Below, one piece after another: positions 1,431 to 9,197 of a stretch of 9,260 nt of DNA (positions are counted from its first letter, which is position 1; each line of letters opens with the position of its first letter). A model generated the notes under the pieces. The model worked only from the letters and a program-made list of their open reading frames with translations. It was not told where the DNA came from and did no database searches. This stretch comes from Fibrobacter sp. (GTDB lineage Bacteria; Fibrobacterota; Fibrobacteria; Fibrobacterales; Fibrobacteraceae): NCBI GenBank assembly GCA_017520105.1, contig JAFWRL010000210.1:1-9260 (forward strand). Reading direction: 5' to 3'. The translations under genes were made by a program, and so were the position numbers.

Positions 1431-1458
1431 TGGATCCTTCGCGCAGCTCAGGATGACA
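1431..1458 (+). repeat. Palindromic repeat, copy 1 (intergenic)
   Basis: A REP-like imperfect palindrome reading TGGATCC ... AGGATGACA. Outer arms are ATCCT and AGGAT. Inside is a TC/TC mismatch on both sides, then a GC/GC inner pair with loop GCA. It starts 8 bases after the parC stop and is transcribed with the parC message. It is an inverted partner of the copy at 1473-1500, so the two could also pair with each other. Confidence 0.85.
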
Positions 1459-1472
1459 ACGGAATGATAAGC

Positions 1473-1500
1473 TGTCATCCCGAATGCAATGAGGGATCCA
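1473..1500 (-). repeat. Palindromic repeat, copy 2 (intergenic, inverted)
   Basis: Same architecture as copy 1 but on the opposite strand. Read on the - strand the arms are ATCCC and GGGAT, the TC/TC mismatch is kept, and the inner stem is AT/AT with loop TGC. The outer arm differs from copy 1 on both sides at once (T-A changed to C-G), which supports selection on base pairing. The flanks TGG and GACA are retained. Confidence 0.8.
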
Positions 1501-1520
1501 GTTAAATTAATAACTGTGAC

Positions 1521-1556
1521 TGGATTCTTCGAGGCCTACGGCCTCTCAGAATGACG
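1521..1556 (+). repeat. Palindromic repeat, copy 3 (intergenic)
   Basis: Reads TGGATTCTTC ... AGAATGACG. Outer arms are ATTCT (1524-1528) and AGAAT (1548-1552), then TC/TC, then a perfect inner stem GAGGCC (1531-1536) with GGCCTC (1540-1545) around loop TAC. It runs directly into the terminator that follows. Its orientation is opposite to copy 2, so the three copies alternate +, -, +. Confidence 0.85.
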
Positions 1557-5106: not shown

Positions 5107-8100
5107 TTAAAGTCTCCCAAAACGGCCTTTCAACCTCGCCAAATCGTCTTCTTCTACGACATCCTCGGCATCGCAGCCCTTGCGCTTGTACCGCAAAATT
5201 TCAAAGTCCTCAAGCAAAGCCTTCGCTTGGAGATACAAATCGGCATATTCATTGTTATCAGTCGGAGTGCGGTCAATTTTTCCAAGGAGTTCGCGAGCAT
5301 TTTTCAGTTCGTGATCCTTGAGGTAGCGAGCCTTCAAGTACGGGCGGAAAAATTCGCGGAGAGTATTGGCAGAACGGTTTGATTTATCACGAGACGGGTC
5401 CGTATTGAGTATAGCATGAGATTCGCCAGTGCCGTCCATCGGTAAAGTCATATCTAAAGCATTCGCAACGGAAAGCAATCTTTCAAACAAAGTAGATTCT
5501 TTTTGGTATGCAGAGTGAACCGTTATTATTATTTTATTTCGGATTAGAGGTTTTCCGCTCACATTACGCATGTTTACGCTAAAATCTTTAAGCAGATTCC
5601 AGCATTTCACAAACGCATCAGCTCCAACGAGTCCCGATTCGTAAGTCGCACGCACAAGCGAAAGGCGGATTTCTTCGTCTTCGCTGCGGGTATTCGCCGC
5701 AAGACTCCTGAAATCGCGAATCTTTTTGCCACGCGAGAACTCAAGCCCTGTAAAGCGGACACAGCGATTGGCATCAAGACGGTCGGCAATGAGAGATTTT
5801 GCAACCCAAATTTTAAGCGCCGTTTCAAAGTTATCCGCAAAGACACCGCCTGTTTCGAGCAAATTCAAGCGGTCGGCAATGAGTTGCTTTTTCTCTTCGG
5901 TCTCGGGATGCGCGCCTTCCACTCGTTTGCGGAAAGCTTGCCAAAAGCGGGATTCGTCAGACATCATCAACGCAGACTCGCCAAGTCGCCAGCCAAAACG
6001 CATGTCTTCGAGCGGGAAATCAATACCAAAAGTCACTACTGCAGGGCGAACGGCATAGAACATGCGGTAAGAGCCCCATTCGGGCGACACTTCGATTTTA
6101 TACGGTTCCGGGAAGCCGGGTTTCGAAACGACCAAATGCAACCGCAAATGATTTTCCTTATCCGGGTTCACTGTCGGAACGTCGATGCTAGCGCCGTTTG
6201 CACCAGAGCGGATTTCCTTTGTATTCGAAAGTACTTCGTAAAGCAACAAGAGCGGTGCTTTATGCGGGAAATTTTCGAGTGCGGCGTAAAATTCATCGTC
6301 AATCGCAGTTCGTTTGGCTTCGAGCGATTTTTTAACAGTTTTCGGCATTTCACGAATCACCGATTCAATCATCCATTCGCGCCATTGCTGCATGCTCATC
6401 GCAAATTTTGCTGGAGAAATTTCTGTCAGCAAGTCATAGGGCAAATTGAGCGTAATGCCATCACAATCGCGAGTTGCGTCAAAGACCATTTCTCCAGTGA
6501 CAACGCGCTCGCCAATGCGGAAATGTTCGATGGAGCCGCCAAGAGTAGGGGCTGGAGATTTTCCACGCTTGTCAACCCCGACTTGTTCGGGGTTCCCCTT
6601 TCTTTGCCGAGAAAGCGATTCCGGGTCAGAGCCCGGAATGACGTTGCCTGCATTCGTCTTCCCAAGCGCTACATTCGTCATCCTGAGCGCAGCGAAGGAT
6701 CCAGTGCGGAACCCGTCTGCATCACTTGTCCAAATTGTTCCAGTCGTGCCACCATCTAACTGATCCAACCAATATTTCTCGTCAAATTTGAGGAATTGGT
6801 CGGTGTGTTCGCGAATGTAATCCTTGAGCGTCTTGATGGAATTGACTTTACCCGCAATTCGCGTGTAGTATTCCACAAGCGCATCTTCACTTGGAGCAAG
6901 CCCGAACTGGCGTTTACGAGCTTCGAGCGCATGGAGATTTTCAACGACACGTTCGTTATGCGTCATGAACGGGAAAGGTCGTGCCACCTCGCCCATCACC
7001 ACCGCTTCGCGCCAGAAAATCTGGGCGCAGTCTTCAGGATTCACGCGGGCGTAATCCACACGATGACCACGGCTGATGACAAGCCCTCTAAAGCTCACTT
7101 CTTCGACGGCTTCCACAAAGCCGCGTTCCTTGTTCCACGTCGGTTCAAACCAGCGACGCGTACAGAACTGCTCCGCCACCTGCAAAATCCATTCCGGCTT
7201 GATTTCAGCAGTTTTCGTGAGGAAAATGCGGCTGGTTTCGCGGACTTCAGCACTGAACAGCCATTCTACGCTTTTCGCATAAAGGTCGCTACCCGGGAAA
7301 ACATGCGTTTCGCGTCCGCTCACCAAACGGTAACAGCCGTTTTCGATATCGCGGTGCGCCACCCCGCCCAAGAATCCCGAAAGGAGCGCTATGTGCAAAT
7401 TGTCGCGATGAAACGAATCGAACGGACAAATTTTATTTTCGAATTTTACGTCGAGAATACGACTGAACTGTTCGTACAAATCCACCCATTCACGCAAGCG
7501 CAAAAAATGCATGCTATTCTTGTCGCAGAACTTACGGAGTTTATTCCAAGACTTACCATCCCATTCATCGCAGAACGCATTCCACATCGCAACATAAACG
7601 AGGAAATCGCTCTTGTGACCGCAGAATTTACGGTGCAACTGGCGAATTCGGGTACGTTCAGGTTCGTCGTTCGGCACTACACGCGGGTCCTGGATGCTAA
7701 GCGCCGAGCACACGATAAGTGCAGGCTGCAACACGCCAGATTCACGGGCACGGAGCAATACCGCCGAAAGCGAAACGTCCATCGGGAGCCGCGTCATTTC
7801 GCGACCAAGCTTTGTCACATGGCCATTGGAATTGTCGGCGGTGAGAGCACCAAGTTCAAACAACGTCTTGTAAGCGCCACGGAATGCCGACTGCGGTGGC
7901 GACTGCAAAAACGGGAAGTTTTCCAGTTCCAGACCGAGACTGCGAAGTTGCAGTACCACGTTCGCCAAATTGCTACGGCGAATTTCAGGCTCCGTAAATT
8001 CATCGCGTGCTTCAAAATTCTCGGGAGAGTAAAGGCGAATGCACACGCCGGGCTTCACGCGCCCCGCGCGTCCAGTGCGCTGCCGCGCGCTGGCTTTCGA

Positions 8101-9165
8101 AATCTCTTCGACAGGAAGCCCCTGGATTCTCGCCTGCGCATTGTATCTCGAGATACGCGCCATGCCGGTATCGACAACGTAAGCAATTCCCGGAATCGTC
8201 AAAGACGTTTCTGCAATGTTCGTCGCCAAGACCACACGCGTCTTGCCGGTGTGCTTGAAAATGCGACGCTGTTCATCGGGACTCATGCGCCCGTAAAGCG
8301 GGAGCACGTCAAACGTCGCAGCATCAAGCTCATGTGCAAGTTCGCCCATCAAGTCCTGAATATCGCGTTCCGTCGGCAAAAAGCAAAGCAAATGGTCGCG
8401 GTGCCGCGTTTCCAAATCAAGAATCGCATCGCGAGCTTCTTCAATCAGCCCCGAATCGCCCTTGCCGGAGATATTGAGGTCACGCCCTGGATCCTTCGAC
8501 TTCATGCCTGACGGCATTCCGCTCAGGATGACACAATTCTCTCGTCTTTCGTCTCTCGTCTCTTCTCTAAAATAATACTCCACATCGACGGGGTACGTGC
8601 GGCCTTCGGCCTCCATCACGCAGCTGTTGTCGTAAAACTCTTCGAATAGCTTTGCATCCAGCGTTGCCGAGGCTACAATCAACTTGAAATCCGGACGCCG
8701 CGCAAGAACCGTCTTAAAAATGCCAAGCAAGATATCGATGTTCAACGAACGTTCGTGCGCCTCGTCAATCATAATCGCATTGTACTGCCGGAACAAGCGG
8801 TCCTTGCGGAACTCCTGCAACAAGATACCATCCGTCATCACCTTGATGGGAGCCTCGTTCGTGCCTTGTTCCCAAAAGCGAATTTTCGTGCTGACTAAAT
8901 TTTCGTCCTTGAGTTCTTCGCGCAAGCGGTCAGCAATGGAAATCGCCGCCAAACGCCGAGGCTCAGTAACGCCAATTTTAAAGGGAGACTCCGCGCGGCA
9001 AAACCATTCCAGCAAAAACTTCGGCAACTGCGTCGATTTGCCGGACCCCGTGTCCGCCTTGACAATGATAACTTGATGTTTTTCTAAAAGCTCAAAAAAC
9101 TCCTCCCGATGTTCAACAACGGGAAGCTCCGGGTACTCAATATTTAGACGAAAGAACGCTCGCAT
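5107..9165 (-). CDS. hrpA: ATP-dependent DEAH-box RNA helicase HrpA, with two in-frame repeat insertions
   Basis: HrpA is a cytoplasmic DEAH-box RNA helicase linked in E. coli to mRNA processing and translation quality control. The 1352-residue protein has the full family layout: Walker A DTGSGKST (38-45), motif Ia TEPRRLAA (67-74), DEAH (134-137), SAT (166-168), motif V ATNIAETSLTIPG (314-326), motif VI QRTGRAGR (362-369), the helicase-associated HA2 region (~430-540), an OB-like region (~585-700) and the long HrpA-specific DUF3418 C-terminus (~710-1345). That C-terminus separates it from HrpB. Residue 37 is Ala where HrpA usually has Gly, as in HrpB. It starts at the only usable ATG: the frame is closed by TAA at 9195-9193, and the N-terminus lacks the helical extension of E. 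coli HrpA. No Shine-Dalgarno is seen. Residues ~200-236 and ~806-877 have no counterpart in the E. coli protein as I recall it and are encoded by repeat DNA. The frame stays open through both. Stop is TAA at 5109-5107. Confidence 0.93.
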   Translation of the reverse strand: MRAFFRLNIEYPELPVVEHREEFFELLEKHQVIIVKADTGSGKSTQLPKFLLEWFCRAESPFKIGVTEPRRLAAISIADRLREELKDENLVSTKIRFWEQGTNEAPIKVMTDGILLQEFRKDRLFRQYNAIMIDEAHERSLNIDILLGIFKTVLARRPDFKLIVASATLDAKLFEEFYDNSCVMEAEGRTYPVDVEYYFREETRDERRENCVILSGMPSGMKSKDPGRDLNISGKGDSGLIEEARDAILDLETRHRDHLLCFLPTERDIQDLMGELAHELDAATFDVLPLYGRMSPDEQRRIFKHTGKTRVVLATNIAETSLTIPGIAYVVDTGMARISRYNAQARIQGLPVEEISKASARQRTGRAGRVKPGVCIRLYSPENFEARDEFTEPEIRRSNLANVVLQLRSLGLELENFPFLQSPPQSAFRGAYKTLFELGALTADNSNGHVTKLGREMTRLPMDVSLSAVLLRARESGVLQPALIVCSALSIQDPRVVPNDEPERTRIRQLHRKFCGHKSDFLVYVAMWNAFCDEWDGKSWNKLRKFCDKNSMHFLRLREWVDLYEQFSRILDVKFENKICPFDSFHRDNLHIALLSGFLGGVAHRDIENGCYRLVSGRETHVFPGSDLYAKSVEWLFSAEVRETSRIFLTKTAEIKPEWILQVAEQFCTRRWFEPTWNKERGFVEAVEEVSFRGLVISRGHRVDYARVNPEDCAQIFWREAVVMGEVARPFPFMTHNERVVENLHALEARKRQFGLAPSEDALVEYYTRIAGKVNSIKTLKDYIREHTDQFLKFDEKYWLDQLDGGTTGTIWTSDADGFRTGSFAALRMTNVALGKTNAGNVIPGSDPESLSRQRKGNPEQVGVDKRGKSPAPTLGGSIEHFRIGERVVTGEMVFDATRDCDGITLNLPYDLLTEISPAKFAMSMQQWREWMIESVIREMPKTVKKSLEAKRTAIDDEFYAALENFPHKAPLLLLYEVLSNTKEIRSGANGASIDVPTVNPDKENHLRLHLVVSKPGFPEPYKIEVSPEWGSYRMFYAVRPAVVTFGIDFPLEDMRFGWRLGESALMMSDESRFWQAFRKRVEGAHPETEEKKQLIADRLNLLETGGVFADNFETALKIWVAKSLIADRLDANRCVRFTGLEFSRGKKIRDFRSLAANTRSEDEEIRLSLVRATYESGLVGADAFVKCWNLLKDFSVNMRNVSGKPLIRNKIIITVHSAYQKESTLFERLLSVANALDMTLPMDGTGESHAILNTDPSRDKSNRSANTLREFFRPYLKARYLKDHELKNARELLGKIDRTPTDNNEYADLYLQAKALLEDFEILRYKRKGCDAEDVVEEDDLARLKGRFGRL
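6570..6594 (-). repeat. Palindromic repeat inside hrpA (copy 4, variant)
   Basis: An 8-bp perfect hairpin, AACCCCGA (6574-6581) with TCGGGGTT (6587-6594), loop CTTGT. Read on the - strand it is followed by GACA, the same 3' flank as the other copies, but it lacks the TGGAT start and the TC/TC mismatch. It encodes NPEQVGVD (residues 858-865). Confidence 0.7.
6617..6643 (+). repeat. Palindromic repeat inside hrpA (copy 5, variant)
   Basis: An 8-bp perfect hairpin, ATTCCGGG (6618-6625) with CCCGGAAT (6632-6639), loop TCAGAG, followed by GACG. Oriented opposite to hrpA and to its two neighbouring copies. In hrpA it encodes NVIPGSDPES (residues 841-850). Between it and copy 4 lies a weaker 6-bp hairpin (CTTTCT/AGAAAG, 6598-6615). 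Confidence 0.75.
6677..6705 (-). repeat. Palindromic repeat inside hrpA (copy 6, canonical)
   Basis: A canonical copy on the coding strand of hrpA: TGGATCC ... AGGATGACG, with arms ATCCT/AGGAT, TC/TC mismatch, GC/GC inner pair and loop TGC. It differs from intergenic copy 1 only in the loop and the last base. It encodes GSFAALRMT (residues 822-830). Confidence 0.88.
8488..8533 (+). repeat. Palindromic repeat inside hrpA (copy 7, long inner stem)
   Basis: Begins TGGATCCTTC and ends CTCAGGATGACA, with outer arms ATCCT (8491-8495) and AGGAT (8525-8529) and the TC/TC mismatch. The inner part is longer than in other copies and contains its own stem, ATGCC (8504-8508) with GGCAT (8513-8517), loop TGAC. 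Antisense to hrpA, it encodes VILSGMPSGMKSKDP (residues 212-226). Confidence 0.88.
8540..8560. repeat. Tandem heptad tract inside hrpA
   Basis: Three adjacent 7-base units on the + strand, TCTCGTC, TTTCGTC, TCTCGTC, followed by a degenerate pyrimidine unit (TCTTCTC to 8567). It begins 6 bases after palindrome copy 7. It encodes most of the charged peptide EETRDERRE (residues 201-209). Three units give 21 bases, which keeps the reading frame. Confidence 0.75.
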
Positions 9166-9191
9166 GCTCGCTACAGACGAAAGACTAAAGG

Positions 9192-9197
9192 ATTATA
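9192..9197 (-). promoter_or_regulatory. Candidate promoter -10 box for the hrpA operon
   Basis: A perfect TATAAT on the - strand, 26 bases before the hrpA ATG. No good -35 box sits at 16-18 bases; the nearest hexamers are AAGTTG and AGTTGG. A small palindrome, GCGC-CAAA-GCGC (9201-9212), fills the space between -10 and -35 and could bind a regulator, but it could also be chance. It is the only promoter-like site I see for the five-gene - strand unit. Confidence 0.5.

What the first reader, a model, noticed from the sequence alone, without database searches (positions are those of the whole stretch)
6570..6705. Second in-frame insertion in hrpA: three palindromes in alternating orientation
Seen: hairpins at 6570-6594 (-), 6617-6643 (+) and 6677-6705 (-), each ending in GAC(A/G) when read in its own direction, are all translated (GSFAALRMT, NVIPGSDPES, NPEQVGVD). 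Residues ~806-877 have low-complexity, repeat-derived sequence, and then DGITLNLPYDLL resumes the DUF3418 match. Inferred: a composite BIME-like cluster landed in the gene without breaking it. Two independent insertions in one protein suggest HrpA tolerates extra loops or that the elements are selected for coding compatibility.
Basis: partly seen in the sequence, partly recalled or inferred. Interest (0 to 1): 0.85.

Follow-up and report, generated by a model that had tools for sequence, protein, structure and literature searches.

The report
Swappable hairpin-repeat linker in helicase HrpA
In the rumen bacterium Fibrobacter, a conserved RNA helicase gene contains linkers built from short hairpin DNA repeats, and these linkers differ between strains almost independently of the rest of the gene, as if a housekeeping enzyme carried natural swap sites for mobile DNA.

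Summary
Observation holds: three small palindromic repeats in alternating orientation lie in frame inside an intact Fibrobacter hrpA. E2 and E3 belong to a hairpin family found in 80 of 80 Fibrobacter genomes; E1 is a related repeat whose own hairpin is not better than chance. Tag and stem match CGTC-tagged REPs (PMC3733652); tail and dimer layout do not fully. On a tree of 119 HrpA cores E1 (25 rows) needs 18 changes; core columns of similar frequency need 4 at the median, 13 at most. Six named strains with 97-99% identical cores mix linker contents at three slots. Exact E1 DNA is shared by 7 of 75 genes; silent sites in this linker agree better than in flanking gene parts in the three relatives tested. 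UvrA-like and topoisomerase III-like genes show similar slots in one two-genome comparison. Repeat orientation follows replication in one genome (128 of 185). Repeats are not coding-adapted. Best reading: mobile hairpin repeats land in tolerant linkers and are then exchanged by recombination. In-frame REPs are known; slot-like shuffling in a conserved helicase looks new.

The parts
5107..9165 (-). hrpA, DEAH-box RNA helicase, 1352 aa
   Evidence: TIGR01967 762.2 bits, cut-off 722.75; Pfam DEAD, Helicase_C, HA2, OB, DUF3418 in two stretches; core dN/dS 0.05-0.07
6544..6765 (-). slot S3: hypervariable linker, residues about 801-874
   Evidence: alignment of 121 HrpA; pLDDT under 50 and no helix or strand over residues 805-870
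6677..6705 (+). E1, GTCATCCTGAG-type repeat (foot on + strand, antisense to hrpA), translated as GSFAALRMT
   Evidence: repeat match to 1431-1457; pattern 26 times in 9 of 14 genomes, control 0; exact 32 nt in 7 of 75 hrpA genes
6617..6642 (-). E2, CGTC-like REP hairpin (sense to hrpA), translated as VIPGSDPES
   Evidence: R2 37.4 bits, z -3.73
6571..6597 (+). E3, CGTC-like REP hairpin (antisense to hrpA), translated as NPEQVGVD
   Evidence: R2 41.7 bits, z -3.99
8473..8568 (-). slot S2, residues 200-231: AGACGAGAGACGA-type repeat plus a GTCATCCTGAG-type repeat (8487-8532)
   Evidence: the L001 version matches the start of another ORF of G052 at 92% over 51 nt; hairpin of the stretch 8478-8535 z -1.14
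8983..9000 (-). slot S1, residues 56-61 (short allele here; up to 81 residues in relatives)
5899..5916 (-). slot S4, residues 1084-1089 (mostly follows the core; repeats in 3 of 75 genes)
5371..5457 (-). length-variable linker S5, residues 1237-1265; none of the 71 repeat hits falls here
1431..1457 (-). intergenic GTCATCCTGAG-type repeat after the upstream gene's stop
   Evidence: simple hairpin z -0.05
1474..1502 (+). intergenic degenerate CGTC-like REP
   Evidence: R2 14.4 bits, E 0.012; z -1.07
1519..1555 (-). intergenic GTCATTCTGAG-type repeat with a strong two-part hairpin
   Evidence: z -4.05

Best explanation
The segment is a probably unstructured linker of HrpA that serves in Fibrobacter as a landing and exchange slot for dispersed hairpin repeats. 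Shown: E2 and E3 are members, E1 a cousin, of a genus-wide family of 25-30 bp hairpins with a GTCA foot (CGTC-like REPs); the gene is intact and its core selected; slot contents are mosaics of dispersed repeats; at three slots they are distributed nearly independently of the gene's history and of each other. Inferred: (1) repeats arrive through single-stranded DNA on the lagging-strand template, since their orientation follows replication, by an unidentified enzyme or by template switching; (2) only arrivals that keep the frame and fall in linkers survive; (3) hairpins and shared feet or repeats promote break repair or gene conversion that replaces whole modules, also between species; (4) the peptide has no conserved job beyond being tolerated.
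For: Family: 64 two-sided and 0 one-sided stem changes in 40 copies (38 of these had been picked by a stem scan, so biased); 36 copies picked without the tested pairs: 169 Watson-Crick, 1 G-T, 10 mismatches of 180; 80 of 80 genomes positive with R1. Shuffling: E1 in 25 of 119 rows needs 18 changes, E3 in 38 needs 19; core columns of similar frequency median 4, max 13 (62 columns) and median 8, max 18 (25 columns); random labels of E1's size mean 22.9. At core identity 98% or more, 59% of 852 row pairs have S3 similarity under 0.6 and 16% reach 0.9 (pairs not independent). Named strains: UWB11/UWB13 share S1 but not S2 or S3, UWB13/UWB4 share S3 but not S1 or S2, UWB7/S85 share S2 but not S1 or S3. 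Exchange: fourfold sites in S3 identical 34/38, 33/40, 25/30 against 97/160, 86/155, 85/159 in residues 600-760 plus 875-1060, p 0.0005-0.0023, for the 3 of 7 relatives tested. Elements in slots in 41 of 75 hrpA genes, reversed control 1 of 75, in both orientations and several phases. Replication: 128 of 185, intragenic 21 of 26, convergent plus divergent gaps 38 of 55. Generality: UvrA-like genes 738/824 identical and topoisomerase III-like genes 1026/1061 differ mainly at such slots.
Against: No clean empty site or target duplication was found; alleles differ by replacement. No enzyme identified. Change counts cannot tell gain from loss. Not all linkers behave so: S4 follows the core (r 0.74), and UWB12/UWB11 share both S2 and S3 at 0.95 while differing in S1. 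The tree has 48 of 114 inner branches weak. In the 23 rows on long contigs E1 (8 rows) needs 6 changes and 1 of 44 core columns reaches that. The replication bias rests on one contig and is mixed with a gene-sense effect in co-directional gaps. E1's hairpin is weak. Low pLDDT is not special to S3 in this model: 310 of 793 residues are under 50. Expression is not shown.
Confidence: 0.72

Rival explanations
1. A single composite BIME-like cluster inserted once and was inherited.
For: Three elements sit together in alternating orientation; the feet of E1 and E2 face each other, a layout reported as common for CGTC REPs (if head means the tagged end).
Against: E2+E3 without E1, E1 with another element instead of E2, and many other combinations occur among relatives; 18 and 19 changes on the tree.
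Confidence: 0.04
2. Ordinary RAYT- or IS200-mobilised REPs: a Y1 transposase moves them.
For: Hairpin with a tetranucleotide foot and a replication-strand bias as for Y1 transposition. Y1_Tnp matches in 5 of 14 genomes, weak RAYT-model matches in 25 of 80.
Against: RAYT model over its cut-off in 0 of 80 genomes, many of them incomplete assemblies; 1 of 11 Y1 loci has an R1 hit, about 1.1 kb from the match if flanks are 1,500 bases; CGTC REPs were reported without transposase association.
Confidence: 0.15
3. The slots are kept variable by diversifying selection, for example because HrpA linkers are contacted by phage proteins or toxins, and repeats are just raw material.
For: Nearly random distribution of alleles with the core under purifying selection; other nucleic-acid enzymes show slots.
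Against: No partner known; linker peptides look like translated repeats in arbitrary frames; S3 dN/dS is 0.20-0.91 against seven relatives, not above 1.
Confidence: 0.12
4. Assembly artefact: metagenome assemblies join different strains at repeats, creating false linker mosaics.
For: Many rows come from metagenome assemblies on short contigs.
Against: Six named strains show the same mixing (that they are cultured isolates is recalled); 23 rows on contigs of 100 kb or more need 6 changes against a core median of 2.
Confidence: 0.05
5. The linker is old and DNA-constrained (for example a regulatory hairpin), with repeated loss rather than exchange.
For: Exact E1 DNA in 7 of 75 genes and better conserved silent sites in S3; the adjoining residues 760-800 are also well conserved (10/14, 12/13, 8/11).
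Against: Other alleles are not deletions but other repeats; orientations and frames vary; S1, S2, S3 correlate weakly with the core (r 0.14, 0.18, 0.35).
Confidence: 0.12

Closest known systems
CGTC-tagged REPs (Di Nocera et al. 2013, PMC3733652; abstract, passages and sections 6, 14, 15 seen)
   Same: GTC tag followed by an 8-bp stem beginning with an A-T pair, dispersed, near gene 3' ends, no transposase association; the paper reports REPs of both its superfamilies inside genes for UvrA, UvrD, DNA ligase, RNA helicases, pseudouridine synthases, and different REPs at about the same site of recB in two Xanthomonas species, a precedent for a slot.
   Different: Tag mostly TGTC (a listed variant); loop 5-6 nt, tail not CCA; adjacent pairs here are 4 feet-together, 9 feet-apart, 8 same-direction of 21, whereas the paper finds head-to-head dimers predominant. 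No mixing of intragenic copies between lineages in the parts seen.
Rickettsia palindromic elements, RPE (PMC10969869 passages; PMC3733652)
   Same: Palindromes inserted in frame in protein genes; RPE-4 and RPE-6 are counted as CGTC REPs.
   Different: The RPEs described in the review are about 150 bp and encode a conserved peptide; here 25-30 bp, both orientations, several frames.
dRS3 of Neisseria
   Same: Listed as CGTC-1 repeats.
   Different: Mostly in large clusters; not studied here.
GTAG REPs / BIMEs with RAYT
   Same: Small hairpin with a foot; linked to ssDNA transposases.
   Different: Other foot; RAYT model over cut-off in 0 of 80 genomes.

Membership tests
CGTC-tagged REP (E2, E3 and family) | unpaired CGTC (or TGTC/CCTC) motif at one end | tested here: met
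   T precedes GTC in at least 90% of 40 copies, C at E2. GTCA itself was a selection criterion, so its constancy proves nothing
CGTC-tagged REP (E2, E3 and family) | 8-9 bp stem with A-T pairs in first and second position | tested here: met
   8 pairs; first A-T 40 of 40, second A-T type 33 of 40; pairing confirmed on 36 differently chosen copies
CGTC-tagged REP (E2, E3 and family) | loop of 4-5 nt | tested here: inconclusive
   5 nt in E3, 6 in E2
CGTC-tagged REP (E2, E3 and family) | 3-nt tail, mostly CCA | tested here: inconclusive
   short unpaired tail present, but mostly C-N-C-C
CGTC-tagged REP (E2, E3 and family) | dimers mainly head-to-head (a reported tendency) | tested here: not met
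   21 pairs within 80 bp: 4 feet-together, 9 feet-apart, 8 same-direction
CGTC-tagged REP (E2, E3 and family) | dispersed, mainly intergenic, close to gene 3' ends | tested here: met
   185 in 2.0 Mb, 26 in called genes; median 43 nt from an upstream gene's end, 146 copies
CGTC-tagged REP (E2, E3 and family) | not flanking transposase genes | tested here: met
   of 11 Y1 loci one has a hit, distant; other transposase classes not tested
CGTC-tagged REP (E1) | continuous 8-9 bp stem | tested here: not met
   5 bp, GA/GA internal loop, 2 bp; z +0.51; E1 is filed as a related type only
BIME / GTAG REP with RAYT | GTAG foot and a RAYT in the genome | tested here: not met
   foot is GTCA; RAYT over cut-off in 0 of 80 genomes
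RPE (long type) | about 150 bp, conserved peptide | tested here: not met
   25-30 nt, sense and antisense, more than one phase
HrpA | TIGR01967 equivalog score | tested here: met
   762.2 bits, cut-off 722.75

The most novel reading that the evidence does not exclude
Fibrobacter nucleic-acid enzymes (HrpA, UvrA-like, topoisomerase III-like) contain standing exchange slots: linkers whose DNA is a recombination hot spot made of hairpin repeats, so that linker alleles reassort among strains and species as freely as accessory genes while the catalytic core stays largely tree-like. REP hairpins would be the agents (breakage on the lagging strand, repair from foreign alleles) rather than passengers.
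Probability: 0.45. Interest if true: 0.85.

Novelty: new variant of a known kind. Interest (0 to 1): 0.72.

Why it matters
In-frame REPs were known as oddities. Here the same positions of a conserved helicase hold different repeat mosaics in strains with nearly identical cores, which makes the turnover of such elements measurable and offers natural tests of linker tolerance in DEAH helicases. It links REP spread to replication strand in a genus where no RAYT passes the curated cut-off (0 of 80 genomes), and so bears on the question left open in PMC3733652 of how CGTC REPs, which lack a dedicated transposase, move.

Tried and rejected
Rejected: single composite insertion; RAYT mobilisation as such; coding-adapted elements; assembly chimeras as the main cause; a pseudogene. 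Led nowhere: Rfam search of the window, 0 matches; text search for the repeat letters, 40 of 2,616 papers listed, which by title look unrelated apart from a Neisseria paper that I did not open; no target duplication or clean empty site in eight site comparisons. A first attempt to test E2 and E3 pairing by peptide motif caught only 54 of 75 genes and few elements: E3 6 of 6 fully paired, E2 8 of 10 fully paired, 1 with a G-T and 1 not paired.

Functional enrichment, not claimed: 8 of 14 repeat-bearing genes of G052 contig 1 act on nucleic acids against 6 of 30 length-matched random genes (p 0.034), or 7 of 14 against 7 of 30 with other sorting (p 0.095). The 14 are what I kept, by eye, of 19 genes behind 26 intragenic hits; 5 genes with hits near ORF ends or with atypical hairpins were dropped. 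The sorting is mine (the U32 peptidase as an RNA-modifying enzyme is recalled). 30 of the 42 drawn control genes were scanned.

First label patterns for E1 and E3 missed some true rows, such as P0042, P0001 and P0091; corrected counts are. Of the 71 hits, 3 lie outside the slots. Per-genome numbers are capped at 88 scored candidates. The genes behind searches come from my own codon-score ORF caller. On G012 contig 7, 11 of 53 kept hairpins fall in called genes, some near ORF ends or atypical.

Full report
What is there. The window comes from a Fibrobacter (14 of 14 related loci are Fibrobacter records). hrpA (5107-9165, minus, 1352 aa) passes the TIGR01967 cut-off; DUF3418 matches in two stretches. 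The gene is open and its core is under purifying selection (dN/dS 0.05-0.07 against seven relatives).

The three palindromes. E3 (6571-6597, +), E2 (6617-6642, -) and E1 (6677-6705, +) are real and in frame. E2 and E3 fold better than all 200 shuffles each; E1 does not (141 of 200 as good). E1 belongs to a GTCATYCTGAG type with a short outer stem, a GA/GA internal loop and a variable inner stem; of its two intergenic relatives here, 1519-1555 folds strongly (z -4.05) and 1431-1457 does not (z -0.05).

The family. On one 527,822-base contig of another genome 39 and 20 GTCA-footed hairpins lie on the two strands, against 3-4 per strand in two Markov controls. In 40 aligned copies (38 from that contig, plus E2 and E3) the stem is 99.7% paired with 64 two-sided and 0 one-sided changes. 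The 38 had been picked by a stem scan, so I repeated the test on 36 copies picked only by foot and a few fixed letters: 169 of 180 test pairs are Watson-Crick, 1 is G-T, 10 are mismatched. The near-absence of G-T pairs suggests that the DNA hairpin, or copying of one arm from the other, keeps the stem (inference). Model R2, without window sequence, finds E3 and E2 and weakly 1471-1503. Tag and stem match CGTC-tagged REPs (PMC3733652, sections 6, 14, 15); loop, tail and dimer layout match less well, so I call them CGTC-like.

Slots. Among 121 HrpA sequences (the window and the 120 listed of 490 found), besides the N-terminus seven segments vary in length: residues 56-61, 200-231, 805-871, 1084-1089 and 1237-1265, a 29-residue insert at 1024 in 9 of 121, and up to 18 residues at 1207. 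E. coli HrpA (9ggr/9gft) has 49 residues where this protein has 112 between aligned positions 782 and 894, the last stretch of that alignment being weak. The fold of residues 560-1352 is poor overall (mean pLDDT 57, pTM 0.33); residues 805-870 are under 50 (about 25-30 for most) without helix or strand, but 310 of 793 residues are under 50, so this only fits disorder. In 75 hrpA genes with DNA, some partial, 41 carry a recognisable element in a slot, reversed-sequence control 1 of 75, in both orientations and several phases: at S1 GTCATCCTGAGC is read as VILSE or CHPERSE, and hairpins as DPRxxGDD; at S4 as GMT. Linker DNA matches other dispersed repeats in the genus: 703 hits, with redundant queries, outside G012's own hrpA.

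Shuffling. On a FastTree tree of 119 HrpA cores without linkers (48 of 114 inner branches weak), E1 (25 rows) needs 18 changes, E3 (38) 19, E2 (55) 19. Core columns of similar frequency need a median of 4 and at most 13 (62 columns) for E1, 8 and at most 18 (25 columns) for E3; random labels of E1's size average 22.9, minimum 19. A tree of neighbouring residues alone gives 16, 21 and 24. In 2,500 sampled pairs of 91 rows, S1, S2 and S3 similarity correlate weakly with core identity (0.14, 0.18, 0.35) and with each other (-0.01 to 0.10), whereas S4 follows the core (0.74). Six strain-named rows with 97-99% identical cores mix contents: UWB11 and UWB13 share S1, UWB13 and UWB4 share S3, UWB7 and S85 share S2, each pair differing at the other two of S1-S3; UWB12 and UWB11 share S2 and S3 (0.95) but not S1. 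That these are cultured isolates is recalled. The exact 32-nt E1 stands in 7 of 75 genes, from different GTDB species by the make-up of the collections. S3 fourfold sites agree in 34/38, 33/40 and 25/30 cases against 97/160, 86/155 and 85/159 in residues 600-760 plus 875-1060 (p 0.0005, 0.0018, 0.0023) for the 3 of 7 relatives tested; residues 760-800, left out of the comparison, also agree well (10/14, 12/13, 8/11). Exchange between lineages is the simplest reading; change counts alone cannot separate gain from loss.

How modules change. Alleles differ by replacement. E1 plus spacer stands where other strains have a few codons before GTCATTC, and a different element (GTCATTCTGAAC...) can stand in E2's place with the same foot. 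At S4 and near residue 1206 elements replace native codons. A 21-nt difference between ACGAATG repeats looks like slippage. I found no target duplication.

Replication. In 2.0 Mb of G052 contig 1 (inferred to be strain UWB11, since a contig length equals that of P0012) lie 185 elements, 26 in called genes where about 147 would be expected if spread evenly. The GTCA strand is the leading strand, that is the sequence of the lagging-strand template, in 128 of 185 (p 2e-7), in 21 of 26 intragenic copies and in 38 of 55 in convergent or divergent gaps, where gene direction cannot explain it. In co-directional gaps both effects appear (leading genes 64 sense, 20 antisense; lagging genes 30 and 32). 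This fits ssDNA-mediated insertion as documented for IS200/IS605 (PMC6006769, passages), but the RAYT model passes its cut-off in 0 of 80 genomes. Template switching would give the same bias.

Not coding-adapted. Intergenic copies have fewer open frames than their shuffles (4.11 against 4.96 of 6; random intergenic 31-mers 3.81).

Generality. Between G052 and G012, a UvrA-like gene (738/824 identical) differs mainly at two slots and a topoisomerase III-like gene (1026/1061) at one (families; both score below the equivalog or subfamily cut-offs). HrpB-, ligase- and UvrD-like genes also carry elements.

Literature. Searches for Fibrobacter with palindromic repeats (20 of 50 listed), REPs with strand bias (2 of 2), Fibrobacter with recombination and linkers (15 of 446), CGTC REPs after 2013 (11 of 11) and intragenic or hypervariable linkers (15 of 70) listed nothing on Fibrobacter REPs or linker shuffling. 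The main texts of PMC3733652, PMC12306157 and PMC6006769 hold the word Fibrobacter 0 times; but figures are not held, and the species list of CGTC families is in a figure, so Fibrobacter could be there. The library holds only open-licence papers.

Verdict. Ordinary in element type, unusual in behaviour: orthologous slots in a conserved helicase gene that turn over like accessory DNA.

Noticed in passing
G052 contig 1 (L123-L222): Orientation of GTCA-footed repeats flips with GC skew: 84 plus/38 minus left of the switch near 1.286 Mb, 19/44 right of it.
   Followed up: partly
window 1431-1555: Three intergenic repeats in alternating orientation directly after the upstream gene's stop codon, a layout like that in hrpA.
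   Followed up: partly
window 1517-1556, 6674-6708, 1428-1460: The GTCATYCTGAG type shows an outer 5-bp stem, a GA/GA internal loop and a variable inner stem; may be a family of its own.
   Followed up: no
window 8535-8568 and 9175-9194: AGACGAGAGACGAAAG-type low-complexity repeats, one translated as RETRDERRE in slot S2, one upstream of hrpA; the same motif fills slots in relatives.
   Followed up: partly
L149:1110-4370 and L031:14202-17387: Topoisomerase III-like genes with three and two in-frame hairpins.
   Followed up: partly
L150:3749-5851: Pectate lyase with a serine-rich linker in which two repeats encode NVILSSSSE, as if repeat and Ser linker had merged.
   Followed up: no
L208:16466-19177: HrpB-like helicase of G052 also carries two in-frame elements.
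   Followed up: no
L022-L048 (G012 contig 7): Other frequent 12-mers form simple arrays such as AGTAGGAAGTAGACAG and CACCAACCACTA.
   Followed up: no
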